This document shows, piece by piece, positions 11,865 through 37,751 of a DNA stretch of 38,026 nucleotides (the stretch's first letter is position 1; every line of letters starts with the position of its first letter). This stretch comes from an uncultured Spartobacteria bacterium (GTDB lineage: Bacteria > Verrucomicrobiota > Verrucomicrobiia > Chthoniobacterales > UBA6821): assembly GCA_903913785.1 (NCBI GenBank), contig CAIWMF010000021.1, positions 1-38,026 on the forward strand. The letters run 5' to 3'. The notes under the pieces were generated by a model that was not told the origin of the DNA, searched no databases, and saw only the letters and a list, made by a program, of their open reading frames with translations. Both the position numbers and the translations under genes were made by a program.

Positions 11865-11930
11865 AGCCCGGATATTTCATACTGGTGCGTCGTGAGGCGC
11901 AGCAGATTCAGTATGAAATATGCGGGTTAA
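11865..11930. mobile_element. Short (~66 bp) palindromic element derivative at the 3' end of the midA-like gene
   Basis: agcccggatatttcatactggtgcgtcgtgaggcgcagcagattcagtatgaaatatgcgggttaa: both arms with a ~20 bp centre. Confidence 0.9.
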
Positions 11931-13026
11931 GTTGCCTAATGCCTGGGCGCTCATAGCGAAAGCAACCGAGTGGAGGTCTGTTCTCAATGGCTTTTCCTAG
12001 TCCTAGAAAATGGAATTGCCGTCCCATGGTTTCTGGATGAAGAAGGGTTTTTAACTGGCGCAAATAAGCTTGTGTAGAGGCATTCTGAAGATGGCCATCG
12101 AGTCTGTGCAGCCATTGTTCTAGGGCGCCTATCATAAAATGATGTTGGTCACTAAAGCCAAGGAGCTCGAAGTCTTGCTCGCGTGCGGTGTTGGCTAGTG
12201 CGGTAAAATCGACATGAGCCGAGATGTCACGGCTGCCTGGTTTTTCTAGAGGGTCGTTGTAGCGTCGATGATTGTGGTAGCAGGCAATACTTCCCTCAGC
12301 TCGGTAGGGAGCAAAACGATGCTCGCCAAAGTAACCATAATCCGCAATAAGGATCATCCCGCGTTCCATACGCTGGGCAATTGCATCGAGCCAGGGAGCA
12401 ATGTTGAGGCGTGCTTCCCATAGAAATCCTGGACTCAGATCGGTGGGCAAGGTGGCTGCTACTGCGTGAAGTTTTTTTTTCTTGATAGGGGTGTTAACCC
12501 AGGAAAAGCATTGCTTCTCTTGCCTTACGCGTTTTTCTAGCCACTCTTTTCCGCTCCAGGTGAGGATATGTACGGGAAAGGCATCAAGCAGTTCATTGGA
12601 AAAATGGACGCCAATGAAGCGAGGGAGTTGCGCAAGTTCTCGTGCCCAGGAAATATTCTTAAATGCTTTGAGTCGCTCTTTTTGGCGCTGCTCATGGAAT
12701 AAAAAAGGTTCTACAATCACGTATTGTGTGCAGGCAAAGAGTTCTTCGTATTCTTCTGCTTGTAAGGCTTCTAAAATATCGAGCGCAAGTCTTCCATCGT
12801 GTGCTCCTTGCTCAATGATGGAAAAGGGTTTGGGCTTGCCGAGCTTTTCCCAAAGGTCTTGGAAGAGAAGTGCTAGGGTTTTTCCATAAATAGGACCAAC
12901 ACTCACATTGGTATAAAAATCACCTTCTTTGCCAATGCGAACACGACCCGACGCGTAGTAGCCATGCTTGGGATCGTAGAGAGCCCGCTGCATGAAGGTT
13001 GCAAAGCAGAGAGAGGGATCAGGCAT
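11908..13026 (-). CDS. SAM-dependent methyltransferase, MidA/NDUFAF7 (DUF185) family
   Basis: FMQRALYDPKHGYYASGRVRIGKEGDFYTNVSVGPIYGKTLALLFQDLWE; SNELLDAFPVH; IADYGYFG; C-terminus LNPHISY* is encoded by a palindromic element. Confidence 0.88.
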   Translation of the reverse strand: MPDPSLCFATFMQRALYDPKHGYYASGRVRIGKEGDFYTNVSVGPIYGKTLALLFQDLWEKLGKPKPFSIIEQGAHDGRLALDILEALQAEEYEELFACTQYVIVEPFLFHEQRQKERLKAFKNISWARELAQLPRFIGVHFSNELLDAFPVHILTWSGKEWLEKRVRQEKQCFSWVNTPIKKKKLHAVAATLPTDLSPGFLWEARLNIAPWLDAIAQRMERGMILIADYGYFGEHRFAPYRAEGSIACYHNHRRYNDPLEKPGSRDISAHVDFTALANTAREQDFELLGFSDQHHFMIGALEQWLHRLDGHLQNASTQAYLRQLKTLLHPETMGRQFHFLGLGKAIENRPPLGCFRYERPGIRQLNPHISY

Positions 13027-14863
13027 TAAGATGACTCCCTTTTTTTTCTTTCCAATAAAACATCATCGCAATGCCAATACAGATTGCTAGTGATCCGATC
13101 CATTTGAGTAACCATCCTGGATCATAGAGGACCTGGAGGGTTGTTTCCTCAAGGTTCTGTGGGTTCCACTCTGCTTGTGAAAATTTATAATTGATCCCTG
13201 TTACGTTCGCTATGAATCCTCCAGGAAAACTTGCTGGATGATTCATTCTAATAGCGTCATGACGTGTTGTGTCAGTTTTGCCGCGTGTGCGATCATGAAA
13301 ACATACGGTTGCTCGAAAATCTCCTGGAGTCTCGGTTCCTTCGTCACGAGGAATTTGAAAATCAACGAGCTCTATGGAAAAGGGAATGGGACGTAGTTCT
13401 AATCCATAACCGATGCGAATAGGAATGTCCTTTAGGATAAGCGGGGTGATTTGTCCTGAGGAGACCCATGTTGCCTCACTCTTGAGGCCATCAGGATCTT
13501 CAAGAAAAGCATGAAAGCCAGGAGTGCCGGTGAGGTTGTTTTTTTTGGAAGAAGGTGGTGTTGGTCGGGTGCGCGAAACGATATGTTCATGATGACCGCT
13601 TTGTAGAAGTTCCATTTGCCAGTCTGCCCAGCCAAGGGGCACGACTTCGCCTATTAGTAAGGATCCACTTTGTTTCGTCTTATTGTGACGACCTAATAAA
13701 AACTCAACACGATCGCTGTTCGGTTCGAGAGCCAGTGCTAACCATGGTTTGTGGGTGGCGTAGGGAATTAACCCGGATATTTCACGCCGATCACCTGCGG
13801 AGACCGGGAAGCCTGATGGATCTTGCGTTAGACTCACATTGTGACTTGGGCGGTATGTACTCATACAGCCCGGCGTCAACATGCTCGTCTGCCTGCCCCC
13901 ATCCGCCTTCGCGGCCTCCTCGTCACGATCGGTATGAAATATGCGGGTTAAAGGAATCTTTTTGGTGCCTGTAGGAGACAATGCTGATAGCTTGGATTCT
14001 TCTTCAGGAGCGGTAGGAGGAGGAGTGAGCGGAGCGGGAGAAGTCGCTTCCTTGGCTGGAGGTTGGAGTGGTTTGTCTGAACGCATCAAGGTGATTGTTG
14101 CAAGACCAAAAAAATCAAAAACGTCTTCGTTTTTCTCCTCTAAGCTCAAAGCTACCAGATGCTCTTGATGGAGTGCTTGACTGCTTAAGCGTAGGAGCAC
14201 TGCCTCACTCTCATCCTTATTTGCTTGTCTCACCAGTGTAGGCACGTCCTCGAGGAATTCGCTCCAATCATCAATGACGAGATGGAGTTTTGTTTCTGGA
14301 ATCCTAAGGCGTGTGGGATGGTTTTTCGAAGGCCGAGCAAGCGTTGCATCAAAGGGAAGGAGATAGAGATGGTAATTAAGCGGGGTTTCCATTTCTAAAA
14401 CACTCTGATTGGTGGTGATGTTTTTCACTGCTGCTCCATGGACTTGTAGCGTCACATTTCCCTCAAATCCTAGCTTGGATCCAATGGCTGCGCCCATGAG
14501 TAAGGTGATAATTCCATAATGAGTGATGACAAAACCAAGATGCTTTCTTTCCCAGGGCCACCTGGTCAAGGTTACCGCAAAGAGATTGAGGCAAAGAAGT
14601 CCCAACCATGCTAGGAACCATGGTGCTTTGTAGATCATGGCATGCGCTACTTTGGTATCAAAATGTGATTCAGTAAACGTCGCCACGCCACAAGCAATGG
14701 CAATAGTGGCAAGGAGGATGAGCGCAAGTTGTAATGAGCCTAGCAGGTGAATGAGCTGCCAGAGGGTCGAATTTTTCTGACGCTCTTTGATCATCATGCG
14801 TCGGGCTTGGGCCTTGTTTTTTAGGGGGTAGATGTTTTCCTGTTGCGGGCTCTCTAGATGCAT
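13019..14863 (-). CDS. resB: ResB-like cytochrome c biogenesis protein carrying a 60-codon in-frame palindromic element
   Basis: LLGSLQLALILLATIAIACGVATFTESHFDTKVAHAMIYKAPWFLAWLGLLCLNLFAVTLTRWPW; LGFVITHYGIITLLMGAAIG; start uncertain (14914, 14863 or a later ATG). Confidence 0.85.
   Translation of the reverse strand: MHLESPQQENIYPLKNKAQARRMMIKERQKNSTLWQLIHLLGSLQLALILLATIAIACGVATFTESHFDTKVAHAMIYKAPWFLAWLGLLCLNLFAVTLTRWPWERKHLGFVITHYGIITLLMGAAIGSKLGFEGNVTLQVHGAAVKNITTNQSVLEMETPLNYHLYLLPFDATLARPSKNHPTRLRIPETKLHLVIDDWSEFLEDVPTLVRQANKDESEAVLLRLSSQALHQEHLVALSLEEKNEDVFDFFGLATITLMRSDKPLQPPAKEATSPAPLTPPPTAPEEESKLSALSPTGTKKIPLTRIFHTDRDEEAAKADGGRQTSMLTPGCMSTYRPSHNVSLTQDPSGFPVSAGDRREISGLIPYATHKPWLALALEPNSDRVEFLLGRHNKTKQSGSLLIGEVVPLGWADWQMELLQSGHHEHIVSRTRPTPPSSKKNNLTGTPGFHAFLEDPDGLKSEATWVSSGQITPLILKDIPIRIGYGLELRPIPFSIELVDFQIPRDEGTETPGDFRATVCFHDRTRGKTDTTRHDAIRMNHPASFPGGFIANVTGINYKFSQAEWNPQNLEETTLQVLYDPGWLLKWIGSLAICIGIAMMFYWKEKKGSHLNA
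13768..13951 (-). mobile_element. Palindromic element copy in resB (TTAA to TTAA, 184 bp, net 180 bp)
   Basis: ttaacccggatatttcacgccgat ... atcggtatgaaatatgcgggttaa; in gene sense LTRIFHTDRDEEAAKADGG...VSAGDRREISGL. Confidence 0.93.
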
Positions 14864-14888
14864 GGGATAGAGAATATAGCCTGTAGAA

Positions 14889-16502: not shown

Positions 16503-16503
16503 C
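16484..16503. repeat. Possible decayed arm at the TolC-family gene 3' end
   Basis: gccagatatttcttactag resembles acccggatatttcatactga; C-terminus QPDISY* parallels NPHISY* of the midA-like protein. Confidence 0.35.
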
Positions 16504-16606
16504 GGGAAGATTCTATACTCAAGGATCATGAGGCGTATATGTAAGGCTAAATTTTTTTATTTTATCCCTTGCCTTTATCGCATCTCTTTGATACTTTCCT
16601 GAACCC

Positions 16607-16816: not shown

Positions 16817-16915
16817 CTCCCGTCTCCCCTCCGGTCCTTCTGGATATCAAGACTTATTGCTGAGAGTTGCAGGGCATCATTGTTGTTAGCTTTCACATTT
16901 CTCAAAAGAAAAACA

Positions 16916-16967
16916 TCCGAATATTTTTCACTGTTTCAACAAAGAAACTATGAAATTTATTCCTAGG
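16916..16967. repeat. Possible decayed short palindromic element between rpmI and rplT
   Basis: tccgaatatttttcactgtttc ... gaaactatgaaatttattcctagg; imperfect inverted repeat with arm-like sequence. Confidence 0.4.
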
Positions 16968-18757: not shown

Positions 18758-19225
18758 ATGATGAAACCTCTTTTTTTTCTTCTCTTATTGCTTGTGCCTT
18801 TTATTTCTTTTTCCGCGCCAAGCAATGATGGACCTGAGGTAACTATTGACCTCAGACAAGATGGATTTTTCTCTATAAGAGAAGATATTGTTTTAGCAAC
18901 AGGGCAAGAATTTTATCTCCGTATCAAGAATCCACAAAACAAGTGGTACCTTGCAGGTGATTCTTATGACCCGAATGCTCTTAGGATAGAAATCAAGGAG
19001 GTCAATCATGCTGGATTCGATTTTCTGGGTAGTGCCATGAAGGTCTTGCTAGTAAGAGAGGATTGCGATGAGAATTTCCTAACGTATTATTTTAAGGCTG
19101 GCGATCATTCAACGAGCGTCAATGTCCGCTTTTATCAGGAGTATTACACGACAGGAAATCTCAGGGGAGAACCAACTCCACAAAAAAAATATTGTAATCC
19201 CTCTCTTCATATCACCATTGAGTGA
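18758..19225 (+). CDS. Hypothetical exported protein, 155 aa, between pheS and pheT
   Basis: ATG 5 bp after the pheS stop; signal peptide MMKPLFFLLLLLVPFISFSAPS; four cysteines would not be needed for the call; no family recognised. Confidence 0.72.
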   Translation: MMKPLFFLLLLLVPFISFSAPSNDGPEVTIDLRQDGFFSIREDIVLATGQEFYLRIKNPQNKWYLAGDSYDPNALRIEIKEVNHAGFDFLGSAMKVLLVREDCDENFLTYYFKAGDHSTSVNVRFYQEYYTTGNLRGEPTPQKKYCNPSLHITIE

Positions 19226-19236
19226 TCGCGTGCCTT

Positions 19237-21786
19237 ATGAAAATTTCTCTCTCGTGGCTTCACACTTATCTTAAAACGACTCAAAGCCCGCAAGAGCTTG
19301 CCGAAACGCTCACGCGTTCCGGGATTGAAGTCAAATCCATCATCTCTACTGGCTCAAACCTGAGCAATGTCGTCGCAGCTCAAATCCTCTCGAGCGACCC
19401 ACATCCCAATGCGGATCGTCTCAGTGTCTGTATCGTGGATGATGGGAGTGCTCACCAGCGTCAGATTGTCTGTGGTGCTAAAAATTATCATGTGGGAGAT
19501 AAGGTTCTCCTTGCGCTCCCCGGAGCCCTCCTTCCAGGAGGAATAAAAATTAAGATTGGTAAGCTACGTGGTGTGGAGAGCGAGGGAATGATGTGTAGTT
19601 CTCAAGAATTAGGTTTGGGTTCGGGGGCGAGTGGCCTTCATATCCTTCCAGCAGAGACGATTCTTGGCACAGAAGTGCAGGAGCTTTTCCCAAGTGATAC
19701 TATCTTAGAACTCGAAGTCACTCCGAACCGTCCTGACTGGCTAGGACATATTGGAGTTGCTCGTGAAGCGGCTGCTTTTGGGGCGGGAGAGTTAACCCGC
19801 ATATTTCATACTGATTCTGCTGCGGCTTGCGAACACCTGATGGATACTGCGTCAGCTTCGAATTGTTCCTCGGGCAGTATGAAACATACAGCCGTCGTCG
19901 CAATCCATCACCTTCCTTGTCACCATCAGGATTCGCGGCGCCTCGCTACAAACCAGTATGAAATATGCGGGTTAATAGAAAAACCACATATTTCTCCTTT
20001 ACTCTCTCATCAAGATTCTAGTGCTCCAAGAGTCATGGATGCCCATGCGTGCCCCTTTTATAGTGTGCGATTTTTCGATCTTATCCAGGTGAACCAGGTC
20101 TCTTCGTTGCTCTCGCGTCGCTTAGAATCCATAGGTGTAAGAAGTATCAATAATATTGTTGATATTGCTAACTATGTGATGATGGAAACAGGTCAGCCTT
20201 TGCATGCCTTTGATGCAAAAAAAATCCAGGGAATACTCACCGTTCGCTTTGCTAGGCAAGGGGAATCCTTGGAGGCTCTCGATGGGGTGACCTATCATCT
20301 TCGATCCTCTGATCTCATCATTGCTGATGAAAAGGGACCGCAAGCCTTAGCGGGTATTCTGGGTGGCATGGCTAGTGGTGTGAGAGAAAGCACGGAGTCG
20401 ATTTTACTAGAGAGTGCTGTTTTTAATCCTACCGTCATTCGCGCATCTGCTTGCTTTCATGGTATAAGAACGGATGCTTCTTATCGTTTTGAACGAGGGT
20501 CACATGCTGCACTTGCAAGTGAAGCCTTAGAACGTGCAACCTCACTGATCAAAGAATGCTCTCAAAATGTGGTCGTACATGAAGTCGCAGTGATTGGTTC
20601 GCTTCCTGCAGCAACGCTGCTGCCTCTTCGCTATGATCGCGTTCGTAGTCTCCTAGGTTTTTCTCTTAAGGATGAAGAGATCTCTTCATTACTCACAAAA
20701 ATAGGATGTACTCCCTGCGAGCATGGGTGGAGGATTCCATCGTGGCGTTTGGATCTCACACGTGAAGTGGATTTGATTGAAGAAATCATCCGTCTCTATG
20801 GAATTGAACGCATCTCTCCTCGATATTTTAGCATTCCCTCTGAGTCGAGCTTGGCTGATCGGCGCTATGATGGAATGATGTTACTACGTCGACGTCTCAT
20901 GGCTTCTGGTTTTTGTGAAGTACGCACGAGTGCCCTCGTGGCCCCGGAGGTCAGTGCGTTGCAGACGATCAGACTGCGTAATCCCATGGGAGAAGAGCAA
21001 TCTGTGTTACGCACAAGTCTCCTCCCAGGGCTCAAAGCAGTCATCGAGCATAACCTCTGTCAAGGAGCAAAGGGACTTAGAATCTTTGAAGTAGGAAAAG
21101 TCTTTGTCAAATGCGTGGAAAATACGAGCGCCCAAGAAGAATCCCTATCCCTAGCTCTCATCATGACAGGTGAGGCAGAGTCCTCTTCTTGGCGTGGCGG
21201 AGTTCGGCGCTCGCTCGATCTCTATGATCTTAAAGGAGCACTTGACGCCTTGCTTCCAGGGAAAATGACCTACCATCCCTCGGTGCGTCCATTGCCTGAG
21301 CCAATGGCTATTGCCATGGATCTCTTTTGTGATGATCACTATTGTGGCTACATTGGTTGCCTCTCTCCTGAGGAAGCGCGTAAATTTATGCTCAGCGGGC
21401 AAGATGATGTTCTCATTGTTGCGCAAGTCGAGCTCACTCCTCTTCTGCAAGCGCTCGATCATGGTGCCTGGAAGAAGGAAGGGCCCCTACCTATCTTTCC
21501 AAGTATGACACGTGATCTGGCCGTCGTTGTTGCAAAAAGCATCTCTTATCACGCTCTTGAACAAGCACTCCTTGCACAACAAGAACCATCTCTTAAGAAT
21601 ATCCTTCTCATTGATATTTTTACTGATCCTACAGGTGAAAAAATTTCAGCCCAACACAAGTCCTTAACCTTACAACTGACCTTTCAAGACGAACATCGAA
21701 CGTTAACAACTCAAGAAGTCAACATGATCTGTGAGCGGATGATTGTTGTGCTCAAAGAATCATTTGATCTTGCAATCCGTTCGTAA
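19237..21786 (+). CDS. pheT: Phenylalanyl-tRNA synthetase beta subunit carrying a 60-codon in-frame palindromic element
   Basis: MKISLSWLHTYLKT; LELEVTPNRPDWLGHIGVAREAAAFG; RSINNIVDIANYVMMETGQPLHAFDA; IPSWRLDLTREVDLIEEIIRLYG. Confidence 0.97.
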   Translation: MKISLSWLHTYLKTTQSPQELAETLTRSGIEVKSIISTGSNLSNVVAAQILSSDPHPNADRLSVCIVDDGSAHQRQIVCGAKNYHVGDKVLLALPGALLPGGIKIKIGKLRGVESEGMMCSSQELGLGSGASGLHILPAETILGTEVQELFPSDTILELEVTPNRPDWLGHIGVAREAAAFGAGELTRIFHTDSAAACEHLMDTASASNCSSGSMKHTAVVAIHHLPCHHQDSRRLATNQYEICGLIEKPHISPLLSHQDSSAPRVMDAHACPFYSVRFFDLIQVNQVSSLLSRRLESIGVRSINNIVDIANYVMMETGQPLHAFDAKKIQGILTVRFARQGESLEALDGVTYHLRSSDLIIADEKGPQALAGILGGMASGVRESTESILLESAVFNPTVIRASACFHGIRTDASYRFERGSHAALASEALERATSLIKECSQNVVVHEVAVIGSLPAATLLPLRYDRVRSLLGFSLKDEEISSLLTKIGCTPCEHGWRIPSWRLDLTREVDLIEEIIRLYGIERISPRYFSIPSESSLADRRYDGMMLLRRRLMASGFCEVRTSALVAPEVSALQTIRLRNPMGEEQSVLRTSLLPGLKAVIEHNLCQGAKGLRIFEVGKVFVKCVENTSAQEESLSLALIMTGEAESSSWRGGVRRSLDLYDLKGALDALLPGKMTYHPSVRPLPEPMAIAMDLFCDDHYCGYIGCLSPEEARKFMLSGQDDVLIVAQVELTPLLQALDHGAWKKEGPLPIFPSMTRDLAVVVAKSISYHALEQALLAQQEPSLKNILLIDIFTDPTGEKISAQHKSLTLQLTFQDEHRTLTTQEVNMICERMIVVLKESFDLAIRS
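19792..19975 (+). mobile_element. Palindromic element copy in pheT (TTAA to TTAA, 184 bp, net 180 bp)
   Basis: ttaacccgcatatttcatactgat ... ccagtatgaaatatgcgggttaa; LTRIFHTDSAAACEH...NQYEICGL. Confidence 0.94.
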
Positions 21787-21978: not shown

Positions 21979-22148
21979 CTAGAGTATTTTAAAAAGAGTT
22001 ATAGCATTGTTTGTGTGGCGTCCTGCGCTGCTCGCTTGCTCGAAGATTAGAGAATATATTGCCAAGTCTGCAAGAGCGGCTTCGACGGCTAGCTGTGTTC
22101 TCGTTCCTGGCACTTCACCCTGCTAGCACTCTTTTTAAAATGCTCTAG
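21979..22148. mobile_element. Second type of palindromic element, CTAG-bounded, ~170 bp
   Basis: ctagagtattttaaaaagagt ... actctttttaaaatgctctag: 20 of 21 arm positions complementary. Confidence 0.7.
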
Positions 22149-22169: not shown

Positions 22170-22449
22170 TTAACCCGCATATTTCATACCGATTCTGCTG
22201 CGGCTTGCGAACACCTGATGGATACTGCGTCAGCTTCGAATGGCTCCTCGGGCAACACCAGTGCTCGGGAGAGCCTTGGGGTAGACTGCCGTAACCGTTA
22301 GGTTAGGGGGTCAGCCCGTAAGGGCGAGCCGAGCAGGTGCGAGCGAGTCAATATGGACTCATACAGCCGTCGTCAGACTTCATCGCTCGCCTTGCCCCAT
22401 CAGTCTTCGCTGCCTCCTCGTCACGATCAGTATGAAACATCCGGGTTAA
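22170..22449. mobile_element. Long intergenic palindromic element copy (TTAA to TTAA, 280 bp, net 276 bp)
   Basis: ttaacccgcatatttcataccgat ... atcagtatgaaacatccgggttaa; left ~80 bp nearly identical to the pheT copy, plus ~96-bp central module. Confidence 0.92.
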
Positions 22450-22471: not shown

Positions 22472-25400
22472 ATGTTTCAGTCTAGAAAAACCTCAAAAAA
22501 CCCCTCCTTTTTATTATTCCTTTTTTTGTGTGCTGCTTGGTTAGTACCTGCCAGAGCTAATAATATTGGGAGTGAAAAGCCTTTGTTAGCTAGTACACAG
22601 GATCCCATAACGACTCAGAGATATTGTGATTTTTTAAATACAAGCACTCTCCTGAATGAGGATTCTCTTACCGAAAAGGGGGAATCACTAGGTCACCTTG
22701 CAGTCGAATGCCTCTCTAATAATTTTTATGACGAGGAAATCTTGGGAGAGACAATCATTCGCATCGGTTTTCCTGAAAATTATCACTATGAATTGGCGTC
22801 ACTAAGAGCCATGGAGGGGTTGAGCTATTATGATATCTCTAGCTACTGCCGTTGGACAAAAAGAACGGATACATTACTTTCCTCTGCTATCGAGTTTTCG
22901 GCGAATGTGCCTCTCTCCAGCATTGATCGAGAGTTAAGATCAACACAAATTCACTCTTTCCTCAAACACGATGCCGTTGCGCAAAGTAGCACTTCTGAAA
23001 ATGAGGAGACATCATGGTCTTCTCCCTCCTATTTAGAGGAACTAGCCGGTCTGGCATTGCTTGTGGGTGGAGGATGCCTAGCTTCTCGCTACAATAGTTC
23101 GCCCAAATATCGTGGGCTCTCGCATCAGAATCAACAGGCATTTGATGCTATTGTGCAGGTGCATTATCCAGAATTTATTGTGAATAATATTGCTGTCGAA
23201 CCTTCTGCTGGCGTTGGCGTAGTATCAAGAACTAACTTTTCCCATGAATTCTCGCGTAACGGGTTCAGGAATATAGGGCATCAATTCTGTGATGTTACTC
23301 TAAACCCAGTGCTTTATCATCTTCCTTTAGAAATACGTCGTGATTGGAATGGGTCAAAAAAAATAGTTTTTGCTGACTGGAACGAGATAAATCCTCCAAA
23401 AAGTTATGATCTTCACGAGCAGTTTCAGAATGCACTAGGCATATTTGCTGATCATTTTCATGAATTTCAAGAAGCACAAAAGAGCGGACTCACTCCTTTC
23501 ATGATTCACGAGACGCTAACGCGTGTTGTGAGCACTCTTGATGCGTTCAAGGCATTTAAAAGTAGGCTCCATGATGCCCCTCAGATCAACAATTCGAGTT
23601 ATTTAAAGCAACTCTACTCAACATGGGATGATGCCACACAAAACTTATCTCTTAATGGAGCGGAGCTATCTTGTTCTCAGGAGATGTGTGAAGATATGCA
23701 GAATCTATTCACGCAGTACTGTGCATCTCAAGAAGAGAAAAACTTCCTGGAGCCACGTTCAGATCTAAAGTCAATACTTCCAAGGTTCTTAGAATACAGT
23801 ATTAAAGCACATGCTGATGTAGGCAAGAGTACCGCATTACAACACAAATCGGTGCTGTCTTCTAATAATAATAGACTCAAGGCGCTACCTCCGAATGAGG
23901 TAAATGATTTTTTTCAAGGAGAGCAGGATCATGTGTCTTATCTGCAAGACACACTCTCATCGCGCTTCAGTACACTTGGAGAATATAGGAGTGGTGCCAT
24001 TGCAAAGAATATTCGCTCCTCTTCTGCTGTAAGATATCAATGTCACTCTATTGAATTCTTAAATAAGGCTCTTGAGACCGTCCAGGCAATAGACACATCT
24101 TCCCTATTGAACAATGAGGCTAACTGCAGAAACAGATCAGACATTCTTACTCAACGCGATGAACTCCATAAGAATTTCATCACGAGACTGAAGAACATAT
24201 CAGAAGAATATAAAGAGCGAGCAAACCAGGAATACTGGATCGAGCAAAACTCTAGTAATCCATCTCATAATAATTCTTCCTTAGCGAGTGTCTCTCATGG
24301 AAGCGAGCGTTCATCTAGCATGACTTCTGTTAGTTCAAGCCTTTTCGGTAATTCTCAAGGGAGGGATGCTCTTCTCCATCGTTTAAAAGAGGCTGCAAAA
24401 CAAGAGGAGCTTGCTCTTGGGTACGCCAATCAAGGCTTGGCAGCAAGCTCAAATAAAGATCATATTAGTAGCTTGAGAGTAGATCTTTTAAGCAAGATGG
24501 CCGAGAATCATAAAGACGTGGCTGCTGCTATTTTAAAAGATAAACGCTCTGACATGAACGACTCTCCTCATGCTGGAAAAGTCGAGGATCGAGATGGCTT
24601 GCGGAGCCGCCCCAACCAAGACAACAACGAAAAAGTTTACACAAATATTATTGATTTGAGTCTGCTGGGCTGTCAGAAAAAACAACTAGAGTGTCTCAAC
24701 AAAGCTAGTGAAGCAGAAACTGCCGGTCTAAATACGAAACCTTTTCTTGACCAGGCAGAAGCATGGCAAAAAACAGCATTGGCCGCACAGAACGTACTTG
24801 AAGAAGAAAAAACGCAATATAGCAGAAGAGAGGATATTCACGATGAGCATCACCTGGATCCCTCAAGTAAAAGATGGTGGACTGTTTCTTCCAAGATTCT
24901 CAAAGAGCAAAAAACATTAACCCGTTATTACTATGACGATGCATTGGCTCTTTCAGGACAAGAGCCCCCCTTACAAAAGGCTCAACGTAGTAAGGCTATT
25001 GAGATGCAAAGGAAAGTTATTGCCTGTCTAAGCTCTTCTTGTATCAGCGGTCATAGCGAAAATCCCCAAGACTTAAAAAATGCGACCATGTATAGCGCTC
25101 TGGCAGATGAATTCCGTGCTTCTATCCCGGTAGAGCAAACATTATTAGCATTAGAATCCCAAAAAAACAGTTTAACCCGCATATTTCATACTGATCGTAA
25201 CGAGGAGGCTGCGAAGGCTGATGGGGTCAGTCAGACGAGCATTTTGACGCCGGGCTGTATGAGTCCATACCGCCCAAGTCACAATGTGAGTCTAACGCAA
25301 GATCCATCTGACTTCCCGGTCTCCGCAGGTGATCGGTGTGAAATATTCGGGTTAAGCCAAGAGAAAGCATATACGCACAATACATTACTAGGGAATCTTC

Positions 25401-27586
25401 TTGATCAAGCAATAGAGTGCCACGAGCTTCTAAAGCAACATATTGAGAAAACACGAAACAATATTGAGAACTCTCTATTGAAAACAGAAGCGGTATATAA
25501 GGCAGAATACGAAATTCGAGAGTTGCTCACAACTGTTGCCGCTGGGGCAGAAAAAGATGTTCGTTCCACACAAAAAATACTTGAGGCCGCATCAAGTTTG
25601 ACCTCAAGCAAGGTCAATGAGAGAGATCCATCTCATGACGGTTTGATTCATGACAATGGAGATGTAGATACAAGTCATGAGAATACTTTTTCTCATCTGA
25701 CTCTTTGTAAGAAAAGCATCGCGGCTAATACCGAGGATTTGGATCAAGTGATTTTGAGCCTCACAGCACGTCTTGAAGACTACAACACGCTCCTTGTTCA
25801 TCTATCCGAGGATAGTATCCCGCTCAACAAGGAGAAGAGTATTGAAGTTTTTCGCATCACCACTAAGAAATACAGAACACTTGTACAAGCCCTCCTCGAT
25901 CGTATTGATGCTAGAATAACATTAGCTGAGCAAGAGCTCTCGAGAAGTGCTTCTTCAGCACAAGATGATCATTCACCACAAATATCGGTTGCACGCAAAG
26001 CCGTTGAGTATCGGAGTAAGAATGTCACTCTTGCAGAACATATGATACAGGCTTCATCTTCTGAAGATTGTTGGGGGCGTCACCGTGAGGATGATGTGCG
26101 AGGCTTTAGTATGGAGTGGAACAACCGACTTGCTCGCTTGGCAGAACACATCGTCGCGTTGGACCGCAAGGCCGCGACAAGCGAGCACCAAGCAAGTACT
26201 CGTGTAGAGTATGGAGGGCTTAAAAAAATTTCCATTCGTGGCTTACGTAAAATCACGAATGTACTGTTAGAAAAAGTTTTTGATCAAGAAATAAAACTCT
26301 CTCAAAAAGCCCTCGCGCATCCATTCAATTATTTTGGCGGTAGATTTCAAAGCTGGCATGTTCCCTTAGAGGAGACGCACCGATGCGTCTTTGATAGGTG
26401 TTCTAAAACCTTGGATCAACTCATCACATTCTTTAACCAGTCGAAAAAAAATGATATTCCTCTTGGAGAAGCTCACAAAGATGTCATACAAGGCATAGAA
26501 AATTGGATTGAGAAGGCAAGGGATCGATTCATATCGAAAATATCAGATCCTCAACAAGAGCATAACAATTACGCAGGTATATCTGACGAGGTAGCAAGAG
26601 ATGGGTTATACATGAATTCTATACACGAGTTATTAGCAAATGCTAACCGTTTAGATCAGCTTCAAGCGAGCATGCTAGCAAATGACCTGCCCAAGTGGCA
26701 TGATGCGATAGCCACTCAAAAATGTCTCGTGGATTTACACAAGAGATATCTTGATCACCAAATATCCTCACAACTTCTTGATACGAAGCCTGTGGCATTA
26801 GCTTCGGATCAGGTGCATGGTGATCTGAGAAATGAGGACAACACTCCTAGTGCTTATTCTTGGTTGAATCCAGATCATTTTCAGGATCCTTACTACTTGA
26901 AGGAAGCAATTTTCGAAATGACCAAACCAACACTCGACCTCGTTGCCTACTCAACAAGACATCTAGTGAAAGACACCAATGAAGAGCGCAAGGCCCTTCT
27001 CCAAGAAAATCTCAATACTAATCAGAGGATTCTTGAGCATATTGCCAGCGGTAATGTGTGGCATGAACACCTCCTCACCCTTGCTCACAAAGAGATAGAA
27101 TTCTACAATATGCTGCTTAAAAAGGAGAAATTAACTCATAGCCTGCATGAGGCAAAGGATCACTTTGAAGGATTTTTGCATCATTCGAATACGAACGATT
27201 CCTTAGAAGCAAGGCTAAAAGCGAAACGTCGTAATCATGAAACATTCATTGAAGAACTTCATACTCACGCTAAGTTCGACTTAGCCAAGCGTTATGAGAA
27301 TGATTTTCACACAAAGGACTGGCCAGATTTTATCAAGGCTCAACGTCAAGAAGCAGTCACGCGTGAAGAAAAATTCATACGTGCCCAGAAGGAGTCTAAA
27401 GATATAGAGGAACTAGTCAGTAACTCGATGAATGATCCTATGTATTGGCAAACAAGGGCAGAGCAGGTGAATCATCCAGTTCTCTCATGGTGGAAGAAAA
27501 TACCTTATCTCCTTGATCCATATCTCCCGTATTATCCGAGTGATGAATATTTTTTTACCCCGCTAACTCAGGATATTTTCTACTGA
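22472..27586 (+). CDS. Large exported coiled-coil-like hypothetical protein, 1704 aa, carrying a 60-codon in-frame palindromic element
   Basis: Single uninterrupted ORF; signal-like N-terminus FLLFLFLCAAWLVPARA; Glu/Lys/Gln-rich helical body; further hydrophobic stretch LAGLALLVGGGCLA. Confidence 0.82.
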   Translation: MFQSRKTSKNPSFLLFLFLCAAWLVPARANNIGSEKPLLASTQDPITTQRYCDFLNTSTLLNEDSLTEKGESLGHLAVECLSNNFYDEEILGETIIRIGFPENYHYELASLRAMEGLSYYDISSYCRWTKRTDTLLSSAIEFSANVPLSSIDRELRSTQIHSFLKHDAVAQSSTSENEETSWSSPSYLEELAGLALLVGGGCLASRYNSSPKYRGLSHQNQQAFDAIVQVHYPEFIVNNIAVEPSAGVGVVSRTNFSHEFSRNGFRNIGHQFCDVTLNPVLYHLPLEIRRDWNGSKKIVFADWNEINPPKSYDLHEQFQNALGIFADHFHEFQEAQKSGLTPFMIHETLTRVVSTLDAFKAFKSRLHDAPQINNSSYLKQLYSTWDDATQNLSLNGAELSCSQEMCEDMQNLFTQYCASQEEKNFLEPRSDLKSILPRFLEYSIKAHADVGKSTALQHKSVLSSNNNRLKALPPNEVNDFFQGEQDHVSYLQDTLSSRFSTLGEYRSGAIAKNIRSSSAVRYQCHSIEFLNKALETVQAIDTSSLLNNEANCRNRSDILTQRDELHKNFITRLKNISEEYKERANQEYWIEQNSSNPSHNNSSLASVSHGSERSSSMTSVSSSLFGNSQGRDALLHRLKEAAKQEELALGYANQGLAASSNKDHISSLRVDLLSKMAENHKDVAAAILKDKRSDMNDSPHAGKVEDRDGLRSRPNQDNNEKVYTNIIDLSLLGCQKKQLECLNKASEAETAGLNTKPFLDQAEAWQKTALAAQNVLEEEKTQYSRREDIHDEHHLDPSSKRWWTVSSKILKEQKTLTRYYYDDALALSGQEPPLQKAQRSKAIEMQRKVIACLSSSCISGHSENPQDLKNATMYSALADEFRASIPVEQTLLALESQKNSLTRIFHTDRNEEAAKADGVSQTSILTPGCMSPYRPSHNVSLTQDPSDFPVSAGDRCEIFGLSQEKAYTHNTLLGNLLDQAIECHELLKQHIEKTRNNIENSLLKTEAVYKAEYEIRELLTTVAAGAEKDVRSTQKILEAASSLTSSKVNERDPSHDGLIHDNGDVDTSHENTFSHLTLCKKSIAANTEDLDQVILSLTARLEDYNTLLVHLSEDSIPLNKEKSIEVFRITTKKYRTLVQALLDRIDARITLAEQELSRSASSAQDDHSPQISVARKAVEYRSKNVTLAEHMIQASSSEDCWGRHREDDVRGFSMEWNNRLARLAEHIVALDRKAATSEHQASTRVEYGGLKKISIRGLRKITNVLLEKVFDQEIKLSQKALAHPFNYFGGRFQSWHVPLEETHRCVFDRCSKTLDQLITFFNQSKKNDIPLGEAHKDVIQGIENWIEKARDRFISKISDPQQEHNNYAGISDEVARDGLYMNSIHELLANANRLDQLQASMLANDLPKWHDAIATQKCLVDLHKRYLDHQISSQLLDTKPVALASDQVHGDLRNEDNTPSAYSWLNPDHFQDPYYLKEAIFEMTKPTLDLVAYSTRHLVKDTNEERKALLQENLNTNQRILEHIASGNVWHEHLLTLAHKEIEFYNMLLKKEKLTHSLHEAKDHFEGFLHHSNTNDSLEARLKAKRRNHETFIEELHTHAKFDLAKRYENDFHTKDWPDFIKAQRQEAVTREEKFIRAQKESKDIEELVSNSMNDPMYWQTRAEQVNHPVLSWWKKIPYLLDPYLPYYPSDEYFFTPLTQDIFY
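25172..25355 (-). mobile_element. Palindromic element copy in the 1704-aa gene (TTAA to TTAA, 184 bp, net 180 bp)
   Basis: ttaacccgcatatttcatactgat ... atcggtgtgaaatattcgggttaa; internally near-identical to the resB copy. Internal sequence is opposite to the pheT copy relative to the host gene (orientation label arbitrary). Confidence 0.94.
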
Positions 27587-27933
27587 TCGTGACGAGGAGG
27601 ACGCGAAACTAGGGTTGGGTAAGACGAGTGATGAAGTCTGATGACGGCTGTATGTATAGAGCCCTCTCCAAGTCAGAATGTGAGTTTGAGCGTAGCACAT
27701 CTAGCCCGGATATTTCATACTGATCACCTTGCGGAGACCGGGAAGCTAGGGTGAATGCTGCGCCCAAGCTCGAAGTCTTCCTCGAGCAGTATGGACTCAT
27801 ACAGCCGTCGTCAGACTTCATCACTTGCCTTACCCCATCAGCCTTCGCAGTCTCCTCGCGACGAACCAGTATGAAATATGCGGGCTAAATTGCCTGTCTC
27901 CGCAGTAGCTTCGGTATGAAATATCCAGGCTGG
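27563..27933. mobile_element. Outer, decayed palindromic element split by the 27701-27888 copy
   Basis: ctaactcaggatattttctactgatcgtgacgaggagg ... ctgtctccgcagtagcttcggtatgaaatatccaggctgg; both halves collinear with the 25172-25355 copy. Confidence 0.8.
27701..27888. mobile_element. Intergenic palindromic element copy nested inside another copy (CTAG to CTAA, 188 bp)
   Basis: ctagcccggatatttcatactgat ... accagtatgaaatatgcgggctaa. Confidence 0.9.
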
Positions 27934-32063: not shown

Positions 32064-32078
32064 GGACTATAAAAACTC

Positions 32079-32900: not shown

Positions 32901-33931
32901 TGAATATTTTTTGTGCAGGCCTGAATCATCGTACTGCCTCTCTTCAAATAAGAGAGAACTTTGCGGTCAAGCAAGAGGAGATGGCAGAATTACTCGGGCG
33001 CCTGCGTGCTCGGGATGGCCTTTCTGGCGCGGTAATGCTTTCGACTTGTAATCGCGTAGAACTCTATGCGTCGAGTCTTTGTCCGCTCCAGACACTCGAT
33101 GGTTTTCATACCATCTTAAAAGAGCGGGTTGGAAGTGACGTTCCCCTCTACTATCATACAACTCCGGAAGCTGTGAGGCACCTCTTTCGAGTTGCTAGTG
33201 GTCTTGATTCCATGGTGCTCGGAGAGACGGAAATTTTTGGGCAGGTAAAAAAAGCCTATTCCTTTTCTGTCGAACGAGGTGTTACAACACGTCCCTTGCA
33301 CCGCCTCTTTCAACATACTTTTCGCGTAGCCAAACAACTACGTACAGAAACACAAATCACACGTGGCGCATCTTCCATAGGTTCCGTGGCGGTGCAACTT
33401 GCGGAGAAGATTTTTGGACAACTCGATGACTGTCGAGTGATGATTTTAGGAGCGGGAGAGGTGAGTGAGAGAACGGCACGGAGTCTTCAATCTCGTGGGG
33501 TGAGAAGCCTGATTGTTTCTAATCGTCACTACGATAAAGCTGTGACCCTCGCTGCTCAAATTGGAGGAATGGCCTTGCATTTTGATCATTGGGAAAAAAA
33601 CATACGTGATGTTGATATCATCATCAGTGCAACGGGAGCACCTCATGCCATCTTAACGGTTGAAAAACTCCAACCTCACTTAAGACACCGTCGTGGATGT
33701 CCTCTCTTTATTATTGATCTTGCGGTACCACGAGATGTCGAACCCAGCATTAACAAGATGCAAGGAGTCTTTCTCTACGATATTGATAGCTTGCAAAAGA
33801 TCGCTTCAGAATCCATCGACATACGTCGCCAAGAGATTGTTCACTGTGAATCCCTGATCGCACAACATGTGAGGGAATTTCTTCTCTGGATGAGAAAAAA
33901 TCCCTTCATGTCATTTTCCTGCTGCTCCTAG
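32900..33931 (+). CDS. hemA: Glutamyl-tRNA reductase
   Basis: GLNHRTASLQIRENFA; LSTCNRVELYA; SGLDSMVLGETEIFGQVKKAY. Confidence 0.96.
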   Translation: MNIFCAGLNHRTASLQIRENFAVKQEEMAELLGRLRARDGLSGAVMLSTCNRVELYASSLCPLQTLDGFHTILKERVGSDVPLYYHTTPEAVRHLFRVASGLDSMVLGETEIFGQVKKAYSFSVERGVTTRPLHRLFQHTFRVAKQLRTETQITRGASSIGSVAVQLAEKIFGQLDDCRVMILGAGEVSERTARSLQSRGVRSLIVSNRHYDKAVTLAAQIGGMALHFDHWEKNIRDVDIIISATGAPHAILTVEKLQPHLRHRRGCPLFIIDLAVPRDVEPSINKMQGVFLYDIDSLQKIASESIDIRRQEIVHCESLIAQHVREFLLWMRKNPFMSFSCCS

Positions 33932-33940
33932 CAAAAACTC

Positions 33941-34912
33941 ATGATGAGGCCCTCTTTTTTTTCTATAGGAACTCGAGGAAGTGCCCTCGCACTTGCTCAA
34001 ACAAGATCTGTGGTCCATTTGCTTGAGAGCAAGTATCGTGATCTTAAGATAGAGCAAAAAATTATTTCAACACGTGGGGATGCCCATCCTAAGATAGCTA
34101 TCCATCTACCAACAAGCGAGGCAAGTGGTCTTTTTACCCGTCAGCTCGAGGATGCATTGCTTGCTGGCGAAATCGATATGGCTATTCATAGTCTTAAAGA
34201 TCTTCCCATAAGAATCCCTGAGGGACTCATGCTTGCTGCAATCTTACCTCGTGCTAGTTCAACTGATCTGCTCATTAGCCTCGAGCCTCACAAAATTTCT
34301 ACCTTACCCAGGCAAGCAACTATTGGAACAAGTAGCCCGCGTCGCACAGAAATTCTACGCCATATAAGACCTGATTTCATCTTTCAGGCAATACGAGGCA
34401 ATGTGCCAACACGCTTACGCAAACTTGTTTTTAAGGAGTCTCCAGATCAACTCGATGCTCTTATTCTTGCACAGGCTGGGCTGGAGCGCCTCGGCTATGA
34501 TTTTAGAATCGATGATGGGCGAGGGTTCTTTGACTTTGAGGGGAGGAGACTCTATCTAAGAGAACTTGCCGCCATGCTTCCTGCACCAGGACAAGGTGCC
34601 ATTGCTATTGAGACACGTTGTGAGAACACTCCTGCCTCTGCTGCCCTCTGTGTTCAGGTGCTTCATGATGAGAATACAGCCCTTTGTGTAAGTACAGAGC
34701 GACTCTTGCTCTCGTACTTGGGAGGCGGGTGTCACATGGCCTTAGGTGCGTTGGCAAGGGTTGATAACGTAGTAAAAAAAATTCATCTTCAAGGTGTCTA
34801 TTTTCCTTATGAAGGAGCTATCCCTCGTTTGGGAGAAGCCAGTGGTCATACTCCAGAGGAGGTAGCCCTGCGTGTGGCCACTATGCTCGGAGAAAAATTA
34901 GCCATCTCATAG
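33941..34912 (+). CDS. hemC: Porphobilinogen deaminase (hydroxymethylbilane synthase)
   Basis: IGTRGSALALAQTRSV; IDMAIHSLKDLPIRIPEGL; GTSSPRRTEIL; LPAPGQGAIAIETR; LGGGCHMALGA. Confidence 0.97.
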   Translation: MMRPSFFSIGTRGSALALAQTRSVVHLLESKYRDLKIEQKIISTRGDAHPKIAIHLPTSEASGLFTRQLEDALLAGEIDMAIHSLKDLPIRIPEGLMLAAILPRASSTDLLISLEPHKISTLPRQATIGTSSPRRTEILRHIRPDFIFQAIRGNVPTRLRKLVFKESPDQLDALILAQAGLERLGYDFRIDDGRGFFDFEGRRLYLRELAAMLPAPGQGAIAIETRCENTPASAALCVQVLHDENTALCVSTERLLLSYLGGGCHMALGALARVDNVVKKIHLQGVYFPYEGAIPRLGEASGHTPEEVALRVATMLGEKLAIS

Positions 34913-34938
34913 TTTTTTCATTTTTATACCCTAACTTT

Positions 34939-36513
34939 ATGAAACAAAATCCCTCTTCTAAAAAAAAACACGGCATCTGTTATCTTGTGGGCGCAGGTCC
35001 TGGTGATCCAGGGCTCTTCACGATTCGAGGTAGAGAATGCCTCTCACGTGCAGAGGTAGTCCTCTATGATTATTTGAGTAATCAAGAATTACTCCGTTAT
35101 GCTCCAGTTGATGCTGAAAAAATTTTCGTTGGCAAGAGTGCTAGAAAACATGCGCTCTCTCAGGAGGAAATCAATGCGTTGTTAGTCAAAAAAACGCAAG
35201 CAGGTCATTGTGTTGTTCGACTTAAGGGAGGCGATCCTTTTCTCTTTGGCCGAGGTGGGGAGGAGGCTCAAGCATTAGCCGAGGCAGATCTTTCATTTGA
35301 AATTATTCCTGGTGTGACCTCTGCTATCGGGGGACTCGCCTATGCTGGTATTCCTGTGACGCATCGTAGTAATAATTCACAACTGACTATTTTTACTGGT
35401 CATGAAGATCCCTCTAAGGAGGTTTCCTCGCTTCATTATAAGTCTCTTGCCATGGCTCCAGGAACAAAAGTGATGCTCATGGGTGTGGAGCGATTAGATG
35501 CTATTACTACCTCCTTAATGGAGGCAGGGATGGAAGCAGCCACCCCGGCGGCTCTTGTACGGTGGGCTACAACAGGGAGGCATGAAACCATTACCGGAAC
35601 AGCTGCAACCATTGCTCGTCTTGCTCAAGAAAAAAATTTTTCAGCTCCTGCTATTGCTGTTTTTGGAGAGGTGGTTTTGCTTCGAAAAAAATTAAATTGG
35701 TTTGAAACGCGTCCTCTTTTTGGACGTCGTATTGTTGTTACTCGAACGCGTGAACAAGCTAGTGAGCTTGTGACAGGCTTGCGTGAGCTTGGCGCTGATG
35801 TGTACGAATTACCAACCATTCGCATCGAAGCCATCGAAAACAAAGAAGAAAAAGCAGCCTTCCTTGAGGTCGTCAACTATGCCCATGCGTACGATTGGAT
35901 TGTCTTCACAAGCCCGAATGGCGTGAGCGCTTTTTTTGAAGAATTTTATCACCATCATCACGATGCTCGCGCCTTAGGAGCCGCACGCATTGCTGCTATT
36001 GGCCCAGGAACAGAGAAAAAAATTCGTGAATATCGTTTTTCTGTAGATCTAGTGCCTCCAACATTTGTCGCAGAATCGTTGCTTGAAGAGCTCAAGAAGG
36101 TAGGTGTAGAAAACCTTCGTATTCTTTTGCCTCGAGCTAGTGGAGCTCGAGAATTTTTAGCCACAGCCCTTGAAGACCTGGGGGCAATTGTTGATGATGT
36201 GCCGGTTTACCATACTCGTCGAGAACTCGATGATAAAGAAGGAGGGATTCAACGTTTTTTGCAAGAGGGAGCTGATATGATTACCTTTGCAAGCGGATCG
36301 AGTGTGGAATATTTTGACGCATTGTTAAAAAATCTGGGAAGAAGATTGCCCGATTATTGTCACACCGCAAGTATTGGTCCCATTACCTCAAGCAAAATGA
36401 GGGAACTGGGCGTTCCTATTAGTATTGAGGCAAAAAAACACCATATTCCAGGGCTTGTGGAGGCAGTAGTTAGATTTTTTGATAAGGATCAGCCATCAAG
36501 TTTTCTCGCATGA
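34939..36513 (+). CDS. cobA-hemD: Fused uroporphyrinogen-III C-methyltransferase / uroporphyrinogen-III synthase
   Basis: N-terminal CYLVGAGPGDPGLFTIRG, VRLKGGDPFLFGRGGEEAQAL, VTSAIGGLAYAGIPVTHR; C-terminal FGRRIVVTRTREQASELVTGLRELGADVYELPTI. Confidence 0.94.
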   Translation: MKQNPSSKKKHGICYLVGAGPGDPGLFTIRGRECLSRAEVVLYDYLSNQELLRYAPVDAEKIFVGKSARKHALSQEEINALLVKKTQAGHCVVRLKGGDPFLFGRGGEEAQALAEADLSFEIIPGVTSAIGGLAYAGIPVTHRSNNSQLTIFTGHEDPSKEVSSLHYKSLAMAPGTKVMLMGVERLDAITTSLMEAGMEAATPAALVRWATTGRHETITGTAATIARLAQEKNFSAPAIAVFGEVVLLRKKLNWFETRPLFGRRIVVTRTREQASELVTGLRELGADVYELPTIRIEAIENKEEKAAFLEVVNYAHAYDWIVFTSPNGVSAFFEEFYHHHHDARALGAARIAAIGPGTEKKIREYRFSVDLVPPTFVAESLLEELKKVGVENLRILLPRASGAREFLATALEDLGAIVDDVPVYHTRRELDDKEGGIQRFLQEGADMITFASGSSVEYFDALLKNLGRRLPDYCHTASIGPITSSKMRELGVPISIEAKKHHIPGLVEAVVRFFDKDQPSSFLA

Positions 36514-37751
36514 AGTTCTTAATGCGGATTCCGTATTGGAGATATTTTTTCTTACGAGGGTTTTGTTTGTTTCTCGTAACGACTGTATCATTATTCGGGT
36601 CTTCGAGTCACCCTTGGCATCTCGTGCAACGCAAAGCACTAGCCCGGATATTTCATGCCGATCTACTGCGGAGGTCGGGAAGCCAGATGGATGCTTCGCT
36701 CAACTCACATTGTGACTTCGGCAGTATGGACACATATAGCCCGGCGTCAAAATGTGAGTCTGTGTTGACTTGCTTGGCGAAGCTCGTCTCGCCCTTACGG
36801 GCTGCCCCTAACCTAAAACGGTTACGGCAGTCTACCCCAGGCTCTCCCGAGCACTGGTGTTGCCCGAGGAGCCATTCGAAGCTAACGCAGTATCCATCAG
36901 GTGTTCGCAAGCCGCAGCAGAATCGGTATGAAATATGCGGGCTAGAGCCTATAAGCTCTGGAAAATCTCCCCCGCGGTCTCTTGGACCGCCGGTGGTGCC
37001 CCGTCAAGCTTCACGCCCTCCTTGTCAGAATCAGGATGAAATATCCGAGTTACGTACAATAGAGCCCTCGGGTATTTTAGTATCATTTTCTTTTGAGACT
37101 CCCACGAGTGAACAGGCCGAGGTCCAAGCTTTGATTTTTGAGGAAAAAGATTTTTCGCTCCTTGTTGTCGATCAGCCATTGCAGGATCAATCTCTTTTAG
37201 AAATGATGCAGAAGACCTCCTGTGTTGCTGGAATCAATGGAGGCTATTTTCAGCCTGATGGGACACCGCTTGGACTGCTAGTACACTATGGGAAGATGAT
37301 TCATCCCCAACAACGAGGAAGTATCTTGAGTGGATTTTTTGTGAGTTCTCCCGAGAAAATGACTATTCTGCGCCTTGGTGAAGAGATTCCTGCAAGTGCC
37401 AGAGAGGTCCTTCAAGCAGGACCCTTCTTGCTTGACCATGCACGTCCTGTGATAGGACTCGAATCGACTAAAAAAGCCTGCCGCAGCTTTCTTGCAACGA
37501 GTGATCAAGGAATGTGGGTGATGGGTATTATTTCCCCTGTGACCCTTGATCAGGCTTCTCATATTCTTGATGCACTTTCAGGTGTGCTCTCCGAGGAAAA
37601 AAAGGAAAAAAAACTAACACGTGCCTTAAACCTCGATGGGGGCTCTTCTTCTTCATTCTGGGCTAAGACAACACTTGTCCCCTTTTCGTTTCGCAGCGAT
37701 GTCTGCGTCAGGAATTATTTAGGGGTCAAAGAAAAAAAATCATCACAATGA
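36510..37751 (+). CDS. Exported phosphodiester glycosidase (NAGPA-like) domain protein with palindromic-element insert after its signal peptide
   Basis: Signal-like N-terminus; VAGINGGYFQPDGTPLGLLVHYGK, ALNLDGGSSSSFW typical of the family; ATGA overlap with the upstream stop. Confidence 0.82.
   Translation: MKFLMRIPYWRYFFLRGFCLFLVTTVSLFGSSSHPWHLVQRKALARIFHADLLRRSGSQMDASLNSHCDFGSMDTYSPASKCESVLTCLAKLVSPLRAAPNLKRLRQSTPGSPEHWCCPRSHSKLTQYPSGVRKPQQNRYEICGLEPISSGKSPPRSLGPPVVPRQASRPPCQNQDEISELRTIEPSGILVSFSFETPTSEQAEVQALIFEEKDFSLLVVDQPLQDQSLLEMMQKTSCVAGINGGYFQPDGTPLGLLVHYGKMIHPQQRGSILSGFFVSSPEKMTILRLGEEIPASAREVLQAGPFLLDHARPVIGLESTKKACRSFLATSDQGMWVMGIISPVTLDQASHILDALSGVLSEEKKEKKLTRALNLDGGSSSSFWAKTTLVPFSFRSDVCVRNYLGVKEKKSSQ
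36639..36945. mobile_element. Long palindromic element copy in the phosphodiester glycosidase gene (CTAG to CTAG, 307 bp, net 303 bp)
   Basis: ctagcccggatatttcatgccgat ... aatcggtatgaaatatgcgggctag; carries the extra central module shared with 22170-22449. Confidence 0.9.
36946..37055. mobile_element. Second, partial/decayed palindromic element in tandem with the previous one
   Basis: cgccctccttgtcagaatcaggatgaaatatccgagttac resembles the right half of full copies (gcctcctcgtcacgatcagtatgaaacatccgggttaa). Confidence 0.65.

What the first reader, a model, noticed from the sequence alone, without database searches (positions are those of the whole stretch)
11865..37055. Dispersed palindromic-element family that repeatedly inserts in frame into protein-coding genes
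Seen: the arm YTARCCCG(C/G)ATATTTCATACYGAT and its inverse bound at least seven elements in about 25 kb (midA-like 3' end, resB, pheT, pheT-downstream intergenic, 1704-aa gene, 27.6-27.9 kb nested pair, phosphodiester glycosidase gene). Four genes read straight through an element and stay open. Established knowledge: Rickettsia palindromic elements (RPEs) are the known precedent for palindromic selfish DNA tolerated inside ORFs. Inference: this is a different family with its own arms, length classes and YTAR-type boundary. The coding copies would create new 60-100 aa peptide segments in essential enzymes.
Basis: partly seen in the sequence, partly recalled or inferred. Interest (0 to 1): 0.93.

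Follow-up and report, generated by a model that had tools for sequence, protein, structure and literature searches.

The report
Gene-tolerated mini-transposons in a Verrucomicrobiota genus
A short palindromic mobile DNA, present in about two hundred copies in this uncultured bacterium, jumps into four-base YTAR sites; its length and reading frame let it sit inside genes such as pheT, resB and rnpA as an extra 60-residue segment, or slip harmlessly into their stop codons, much like the selfish palindromes known from Rickettsia but in an unrelated phylum.

Summary
The arm occurs 17 times in the window (0 expected) and 422 times in the whole genome, a Chthoniobacterales (Verrucomicrobiota) MAG; 0 of 207 genomes of the order outside its genus carry it. 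Copies are mostly 184 bp including two flanking 4-mers, which are a direct YTAR target-site duplication: these are non-autonomous transposons (MITEs). Net insert is 180 bp (60 codons). Relatives lack the inserts (resB, pheT), and all 10 homology-defined genic insertions are in frame. YTAR gives three outcomes. At xxY|TAR a gene's stop codon is regenerated; these sites are the most occupied (10.6% and 30% in two genomes). At YTA|R the element reads through as ~60 residues (LTRIFHTD...). At xYT|ARx the protein usually ends NPHISY*. Deep genic insertions are 25 to 1 for the read-through phase (p=5e-6). Both consensus subtypes are open in that phase on both strands. A complete IS1634-family transposon in a sister genome has the same CCCG end and a YTAR duplication, so an IS1634-like transposase is the likely mobiliser, but no autonomous partner was found. 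It works like Rickettsia palindromic elements but is a separate family. Translation is inferred, not shown.

The parts
13768..13951 (-). 184-bp element (subtype B) inside resB, read through in frame (resB aa 322-382)
   Evidence: TTAA flanks both sides; arms; ORF; G003 orthologue lacks it...TNTTPLIPVATHKPWL vs ...KKIPL[insert]IPYATHKPWL
19792..19975 (+). 184-bp element (subtype A) inside pheT, read through (PheT aa 191-251)
   Evidence: all 17 relatives with PheT lack the segment; lies in the linker between tRNA_bind (51-150) and B3_4 (276-446) domains
25172..25355 (+). 184-bp element (subtype B, reverse orientation) inside the 1704-aa ORF, read through (aa 901-961)
   Evidence: I1 inverted repeat with 13768-13965, 91%; no orthologue available to show the empty site
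36639..36945 (+). 307-bp long-class element near the N-terminus of the NAGPA (phosphodiester glycosidase) ORF, read through
   Evidence: CTAG flanks both sides, net 303 bp = 101 codons; G001 orthologue aligns only from aa 177, just after the element array
36946..37053 (+). right half of a second element, read through in the same ORF
   Evidence: arm at 37030-37053, 3 mismatches
22170..22449 (.). 280-bp long-class element, intergenic between pheT and the 1704-aa ORF
   Evidence: TTAA flanks
27563..27933 (.). decayed outer element interrupted by an inner one; the 1704-aa ORF ends inside its left arm
   Evidence: left arm CTAACTCAGGATATTTTCTACTGATCG at 27563, right arm 27910-27933; length without the inner copy 187 bp
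27701..27888 (.). inner 188-bp element nested in the previous one
11863..11930 (-). 68-bp short element at the 3' end of the midA-like gene; the gene ends inside it as LNPHISY*
5980..6003 (+). lone diverged arm whose YTAR overlaps the stop codon (TAA 5981-5983) of the ORF 5072-5983

Best explanation
[quoted passage not shown] Core CCCG(C/G)ATATTTCATAC..GTATGAAATAT(C/G)CGGG, about 176 bp and hairpin-forming, inserts at YTAR and duplicates those 4 bp (shown). Net gain is 180 bp = 60 codons (shown). The site's codon phase decides the outcome. At a stop codon (xxY|TAR) the duplication restores the stop and the protein is unchanged. At YTA|R the element reads through as ~60 residues in either orientation. 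At xYT|ARx the arm usually supplies an early stop (NPHISY*). Selection removes most genic insertions except read-through ones and those near gene ends (inferred from the phase and length biases). Mobilisation in trans by an IS1634-like (IS4-superfamily) DDE transposase is inferred from shared CCCG ends and YTAR duplications. The genic copies are presumably translated as insertions rich in Ser, Leu and Arg (inferred).
For: Copy number 422 arms. 128 paired elements in 733 kb, 75 of them with identical flanking 4-mers of YTAR type, and asymmetric CTAA/TTAG flanks are direct repeats 10 to 2. Empty sites in relatives: pheT, resB; homology-defined genic insertions 10/10 in frame. Emptied-sequence census, which does not use the element's own sequence: occupancy of stop-codon sites 10.6%/30%, intergenic 3.6/3.7%, phase 0 0.74/0.81%, phase 1 0.32/0.62% in G000/G003; length a multiple of 3 in 42/44 phase-0 copies vs 58/122 elsewhere (p=2e-9); deep insertions 25 vs 1 (p=5e-6). 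Both consensus subtypes are stop-free in phase 0 on both strands and in no other phase; chance of both strands open 1-4% per subtype. Nested and tandem copies share one YTAR. A complete IS1634-family IS in sister genome G004 is TTAG|CCCGAGTTCCGCAG...CTGCGGAACTCGGG|TTAG, and another in the order has CTAA/CTAA flanks with CCCAAG ends.
Against: No autonomous element carrying the CCCGSATATTTCATAC ends was found. The G000 and G003 assemblies hold no IS1634 transposase above the cut-off, only a truncated IS4_1 fragment in G000, and the match to the G004 IS ends is only the terminal CCCG. IS5 also duplicates YTAR (PMC10359306). No expression or protein data. ORF calls in the census are crude (120 aa or longer), and the sample is 45% of one MAG plus part of another. 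Stop-codon sites are occupied even more than intergenic sites, which neutrality alone does not explain.
Confidence: 0.87

Rival explanations
1. The inserts are removed from the product (RNA excision, translational bypassing, or protein splicing), so the frame does not matter to the host.
For: The copies fold as strong hairpins (z -7.3 and -7.8; interior alone mean z -4.2), as bypassing elements and introns can.
Against: Frame length (42/44) and codon phase (25 to 1 for deep insertions) would not be constrained if the insert were removed. No intron or other Rfam RNA family matches the window. The inserted peptides carry no intein match in Pfam.
Confidence: 0.05
2. Rickettsia-type palindromic elements proper, acquired horizontally.
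For: Same way of life: palindrome, in-frame insertion in many conserved genes (PMC10969869, PMC2229807).
Against: 184 bp versus 105-146 bp; clear YTAR duplication versus none established for RPE (PMC2229807); confined to one Verrucomicrobiota genus in the genomes searched.
Confidence: 0.03
3. Ancestral protein segments conserved in the genes, that is, not insertions.
For: ORFs are uninterrupted.
Against: Orthologues in 17 genomes lack the PheT segment and relatives lack the ResB one; the same DNA lies in unrelated genes and between genes.
Confidence: 0.01
4. Assembly artefact: repeats wrongly joined into genes.
For: Many contigs end in element copies, so the repeats do break the assembly.
Against: Both flanks belong to the same gene, in order and in frame, 10 of 10 times. 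Copies differ by about 10% from consensus, so they are individually resolvable. A second MAG, G003, shows the same pattern.
Confidence: 0.02

Closest known systems
Rickettsia palindromic elements (RPE; Ogata 2000 and 2002, described in PMC2229807 and PMC10969869) and the Wolbachia counterparts (Ogata 2005, cited in PMC2229807)
   Same: Palindromic, 100-200 bp, hairpin-forming, non-autonomous, read in frame inside conserved protein genes including essential ones
   Different: Different phylum; 184 bp; 20-bp arms; a demonstrated 4-bp YTAR duplication (RPE: '?'); only one codon phase readable, in both orientations; large use of stop codons
Other coding-capable bacterial MITEs: ERIC/RU-1, YPAL/RU-2, RU-3, Correia/NEMIS 107-bp form (PMC2229807, PMC2759123)
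   Same: MITEs with target duplications or TA termini that sometimes fuse in frame to ORFs
   Different: Mostly intergenic with some fusions; here the in-frame copies are numerous and net length is 60 codons
IS1634-family insertion sequences of Chthoniobacterales (e.g. L147, G004:C29:26403-28172)
   Same: Ends CCC(G/A), 4-bp YTAR duplication
   Different: 2.0 kb with a 590-aa transposase (NF033559, 316 bits); inner end sequence differs

Membership tests
MITE (miniature inverted-repeat transposable element) | short, no transposase gene, terminal inverted repeats | tested here: met
   Main class 184 bp; 20-bp arms at both ends; interior without a transposase
MITE (miniature inverted-repeat transposable element) | target-site duplication | tested here: met
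   YTAR on both sides, direct repeats
MITE (miniature inverted-repeat transposable element) | high copy number and empty sites in relatives | tested here: met
   422 arms; empty sites
MITE (miniature inverted-repeat transposable element) | a parental IS with the same ends | tested here: inconclusive
   Only terminal CCCG plus YTAR duplication shared with a G004 IS1634 element; no exact parent
Rickettsia palindromic element (RPE) | same sequence family | not tested
   RPE sequences not at hand; the arm was absent from all genomes searched outside the genus, but Rickettsia was not among them
Rickettsia palindromic element (RPE) | palindromic, 105-146 bp | tested here: not met
   Palindromic, but main length 184 bp
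Rickettsia palindromic element (RPE) | in-frame insertion in conserved protein genes | tested here: met
   10/10 homology-defined cases; hosts include pheT, resB, rnpA, malQ, glnD, a class A PBP
Rickettsia palindromic element (RPE) | insert is translated and protein stays active | not testable with these tools
   Needs proteomics or enzyme assay
IS1634-derived MITE | mobilised by an IS1634 transposase | tested here: inconclusive
   Shared end CCCG and YTAR duplication, but no transposase in G000 or G003

The most novel reading that the evidence does not exclude
The element has been selected as a 'gene-safe' transposon. Target choice (YTAR, so stop codons are regenerated), net length (60 codons) and a stop-free frame on both strands together minimise damage, letting it colonise essential genes and steadily add new 60-residue segments to the proteome of a whole genus.
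Probability: 0.35. Interest if true: 0.8.

Novelty: new variant of a known kind. Interest (0 to 1): 0.66.

Why it matters
Protein-coding palindromes were described chiefly from Rickettsiales, and a 2024 review could only say a similar process was 'conceivable' elsewhere (PMC10969869). Here it appears at about 200 copies in an unrelated phylum, with clean empty sites and a clear target duplication, so both mechanism and selection can be measured. It gives a simple rule (codon phase of YTAR) for which insertions survive, and a natural set of essential enzymes carrying fresh 60-residue insertions.

Tried and rejected
IS701 as mobiliser: no DDE_5 match in 18 genomes. IS1380: only a sub-cut-off hit, in G004. 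An autonomous copy between outward-facing arms: in the spans of 0.5-3 kb listed no transposase was recognised; not every ORF there was identified, and the one read in full, C43:1169-2711, holds what looks like a host membrane protein. The IS4_1 fragment next to an arm in C52 is outside the arms and truncated. Viral contigs: no arm. Rfam: no match in the window. A deficit of stop codons in ORF-hosted copies was set aside because hosts were chosen by open frame; the and 86 censuses avoid that circularity. Internal base-pair covariation (8 of 49 pairs with double changes) comes partly from the TSD and from a swapped middle block, so it is not counted as independent proof of a functional RNA. Folding of PheT was not attempted because relatives' sequences from the genome search are not accepted by the folding tool and a single-sequence model would be poor.
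Full report
Check of the observation. The arm YTARCCCGSATATTTCATACYGAT occurs 17 times in the window with up to 3 mismatches and never in 100 shuffles; repeat finding shows the same families as direct and inverted repeats. In the whole genome (1.63 Mb, 220 contigs, 93% complete) it has 202 forward and 220 reverse hits at up to 2 mismatches and none in the reversed-pattern control. Many contigs end in element copies.

Where it lives. Of 213 genomes of the order, 5 of the 6 in one genus match, or 4 sister genomes plus its own, and 0 of 207 others do. Across 387 genomes sampled over the phylum only the same genus is hit. Copy number varies strongly: hundreds of arms in G000 and G003, a diverged CCCGCAAATTTCATAC form in G002, a few in G004 and G005, two decayed arms in G001. 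This is a lineage-specific expansion.

Anatomy. I fetched 733 kb of G000 (with some overlap) and paired arms into 128 elements. The commonest length is 184 bp (45 copies), with neighbours at 185-188 and a longer class around 265-307. The two flanking 4-mers are identical YTAR words in 75 of 128: TTAA/TTAA 44, CTAG/CTAG 21, CTAA/CTAA 6, TTAG/TTAG 4. Because CTAA and TTAG are not palindromic, their repetition in direct orientation (10 direct, 2 inverted) shows a true 4-bp duplication of YTAR rather than symmetric ends. Adjacent copies share a single YTAR, and one copy sits inside another at window 27563-27933, as expected if the elements also jump into each other. Two subtypes, A (e.g. pheT) and B (e.g. 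resB), differ at 77 of 184 positions; some copies are mosaics. Copies average about 90% identity to their consensus. Single copies fold as strong hairpins (z -7.3, -7.8), also without the arms (mean z -4.2).

Empty sites. PheT orthologues in all 17 relatives lack the segment. For example, G003 aligns to residues 3-193 and 265-853 with only about 30 nt between, and the site falls in the linker between the tRNA-binding and B3/4 domains. In ResB, removing the insert gives ...KKIPLIPYATHKPWL against G003 ...TNTTPLIPVATHKPWL. Using blastx of masked loci against relatives, every insertion flanked on both sides by the same homologous gene was in frame: 8 of 8 in G000 and 2 of 2 in G003. One row of that table lists a TGA in the pheT line; the stop count there starts at the beginning of the alignment, which can lie upstream of the gene, and the pheT ORF itself is open from 19222 to 21786. 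Host genes include pheT, resB, rnpA (RNase P protein; a two-copy insert), malQ, glnD, a class A penicillin-binding protein, an FtsX-like permease and an LMW phosphatase.

Three outcomes. For a census that does not depend on the element's own sequence I removed every element in the script, kept one YTAR, called ORFs of 120 aa or more on the emptied sequence, and asked where each insertion and each unoccupied YTAR lay. Since TAR is a stop codon, a YTAR in a gene can only be YTA|R (phase 0), xYT|ARx (phase 1), or the gene's own stop (xxY|TAR). Occupancy in G000/G003: stop codon 21 of 199 (10.6%) / 18 of 60 (30%); intergenic 59 of 1634 (3.6%) / 24 of 651 (3.7%); phase 0 33 of 4431 (0.74%) / 11 of 1364 (0.81%); phase 1 11 of 3471 (0.32%) / 7 of 1130 (0.62%). 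At stop codons the 4-bp duplication restores the stop, so the protein is unchanged. In phase 0 the element is read as LTRIFHTD...(about 60 residues). In phase 1 the arm usually ends the protein within six residues (NPHISY*), as in the midA-like gene of the window. Insertions at least 40 codons from either gene end are 25 in phase 0 and 1 in phase 1, although sites are available 56:44 (p=5e-6). Of phase-0 copies, 42 of 44 have a length that keeps the frame, against 58 of 122 intergenic and stop-codon copies (p=2e-9). This is the pattern of purifying selection on translated insertions. The excess at stop codons over intergenic DNA (p=6e-5 and 3e-10) is not explained by neutrality alone; it may reflect promoters in intergenic DNA or a target preference at gene ends.

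Coding compatibility. Among 184-bp copies every stop-free frame is phase 0 (77 of 77 in G000, 45 of 45 in G003). Both consensus subtypes are open in phase 0 on both strands and in no other phase. Shuffling the interior while keeping the arms leaves both strands open in only 1-4% of trials per subtype. The subtypes share sequence, so this is suggestive rather than conclusive of selection for readable copies.

Mobiliser. DDE_5 (IS701) is absent from the relatives; DDE_Tnp_1 searches found a truncated IS4_1 fragment in G000 and a complete IS1634-family IS in G004. That IS is TTAG|CCCGAGTTCCGCAG...CTGCGGAACTCGGG|TTAG: same terminal CCCG, same kind of 4-bp duplication. Another IS1634-like element in the order has CTAA|CCCAAG ends with CTAA again on the other side. 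No transposase of this family was found in G000 or G003. The mobiliser is therefore inferred as IS1634-like and may be lost or unassembled. IS5 also duplicates YTAR (PMC10359306), so the end sequence, not the target alone, carries the inference.

Comparison. Rickettsia palindromic elements are the nearest analogue in behaviour: 105-146 bp, hairpins, in-frame insertions in conserved genes, with one product, guanylate kinase, shown to be translated and active (PMC2229807). Their target duplication is listed as unknown there. ERIC, YPAL and a Neisseria element also fuse in frame. The present family has its own length, a proven YTAR duplication and a fixed readable phase, so I file it as a MITE that works like an RPE, not as an RPE.

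Limits. No expression data; crude ORF calls; 45% of one MAG and part of a second; RPE sequences not compared directly.

Noticed in passing
21979-22148: A second, unrelated inverted-repeat element of 170 bp with ends CTAGAGTATTTTAAAAAGAG / CTCTTTTTAAAATGCTCTAG, also flanked by CTAG; a 231-bp relative lies at L124:12762-12992, and 19 fuzzy end matches were seen in 733 kb, though G001 gave 15 in 793 kb, so many may be chance.
   Followed up: partly
1-106 and 37863-37968: Both ends of the contig carry a 106-bp inverted repeat (97%) that by eye reads like the start of a PD-(D/E)XK (Rpn-like) transposase-type gene; the contig probably breaks in a repeated gene family.
   Followed up: partly
L083:28-624 (G000 contig C63): rnpA carries roughly 80 extra residues from a partial plus a full element, so the RNase P protein would be 199 aa instead of about 120.
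   Followed up: partly
L147:1188-3193 (G004): Complete IS1634-family transposon with a 590-aa transposase and TTAG target duplication.
   Followed up: yes
L084:2672-3420 (G000 contig C52): Half an element joined to a 5'-truncated IS4-family transposase, then a lone arm: remains of a rearrangement.
   Followed up: partly
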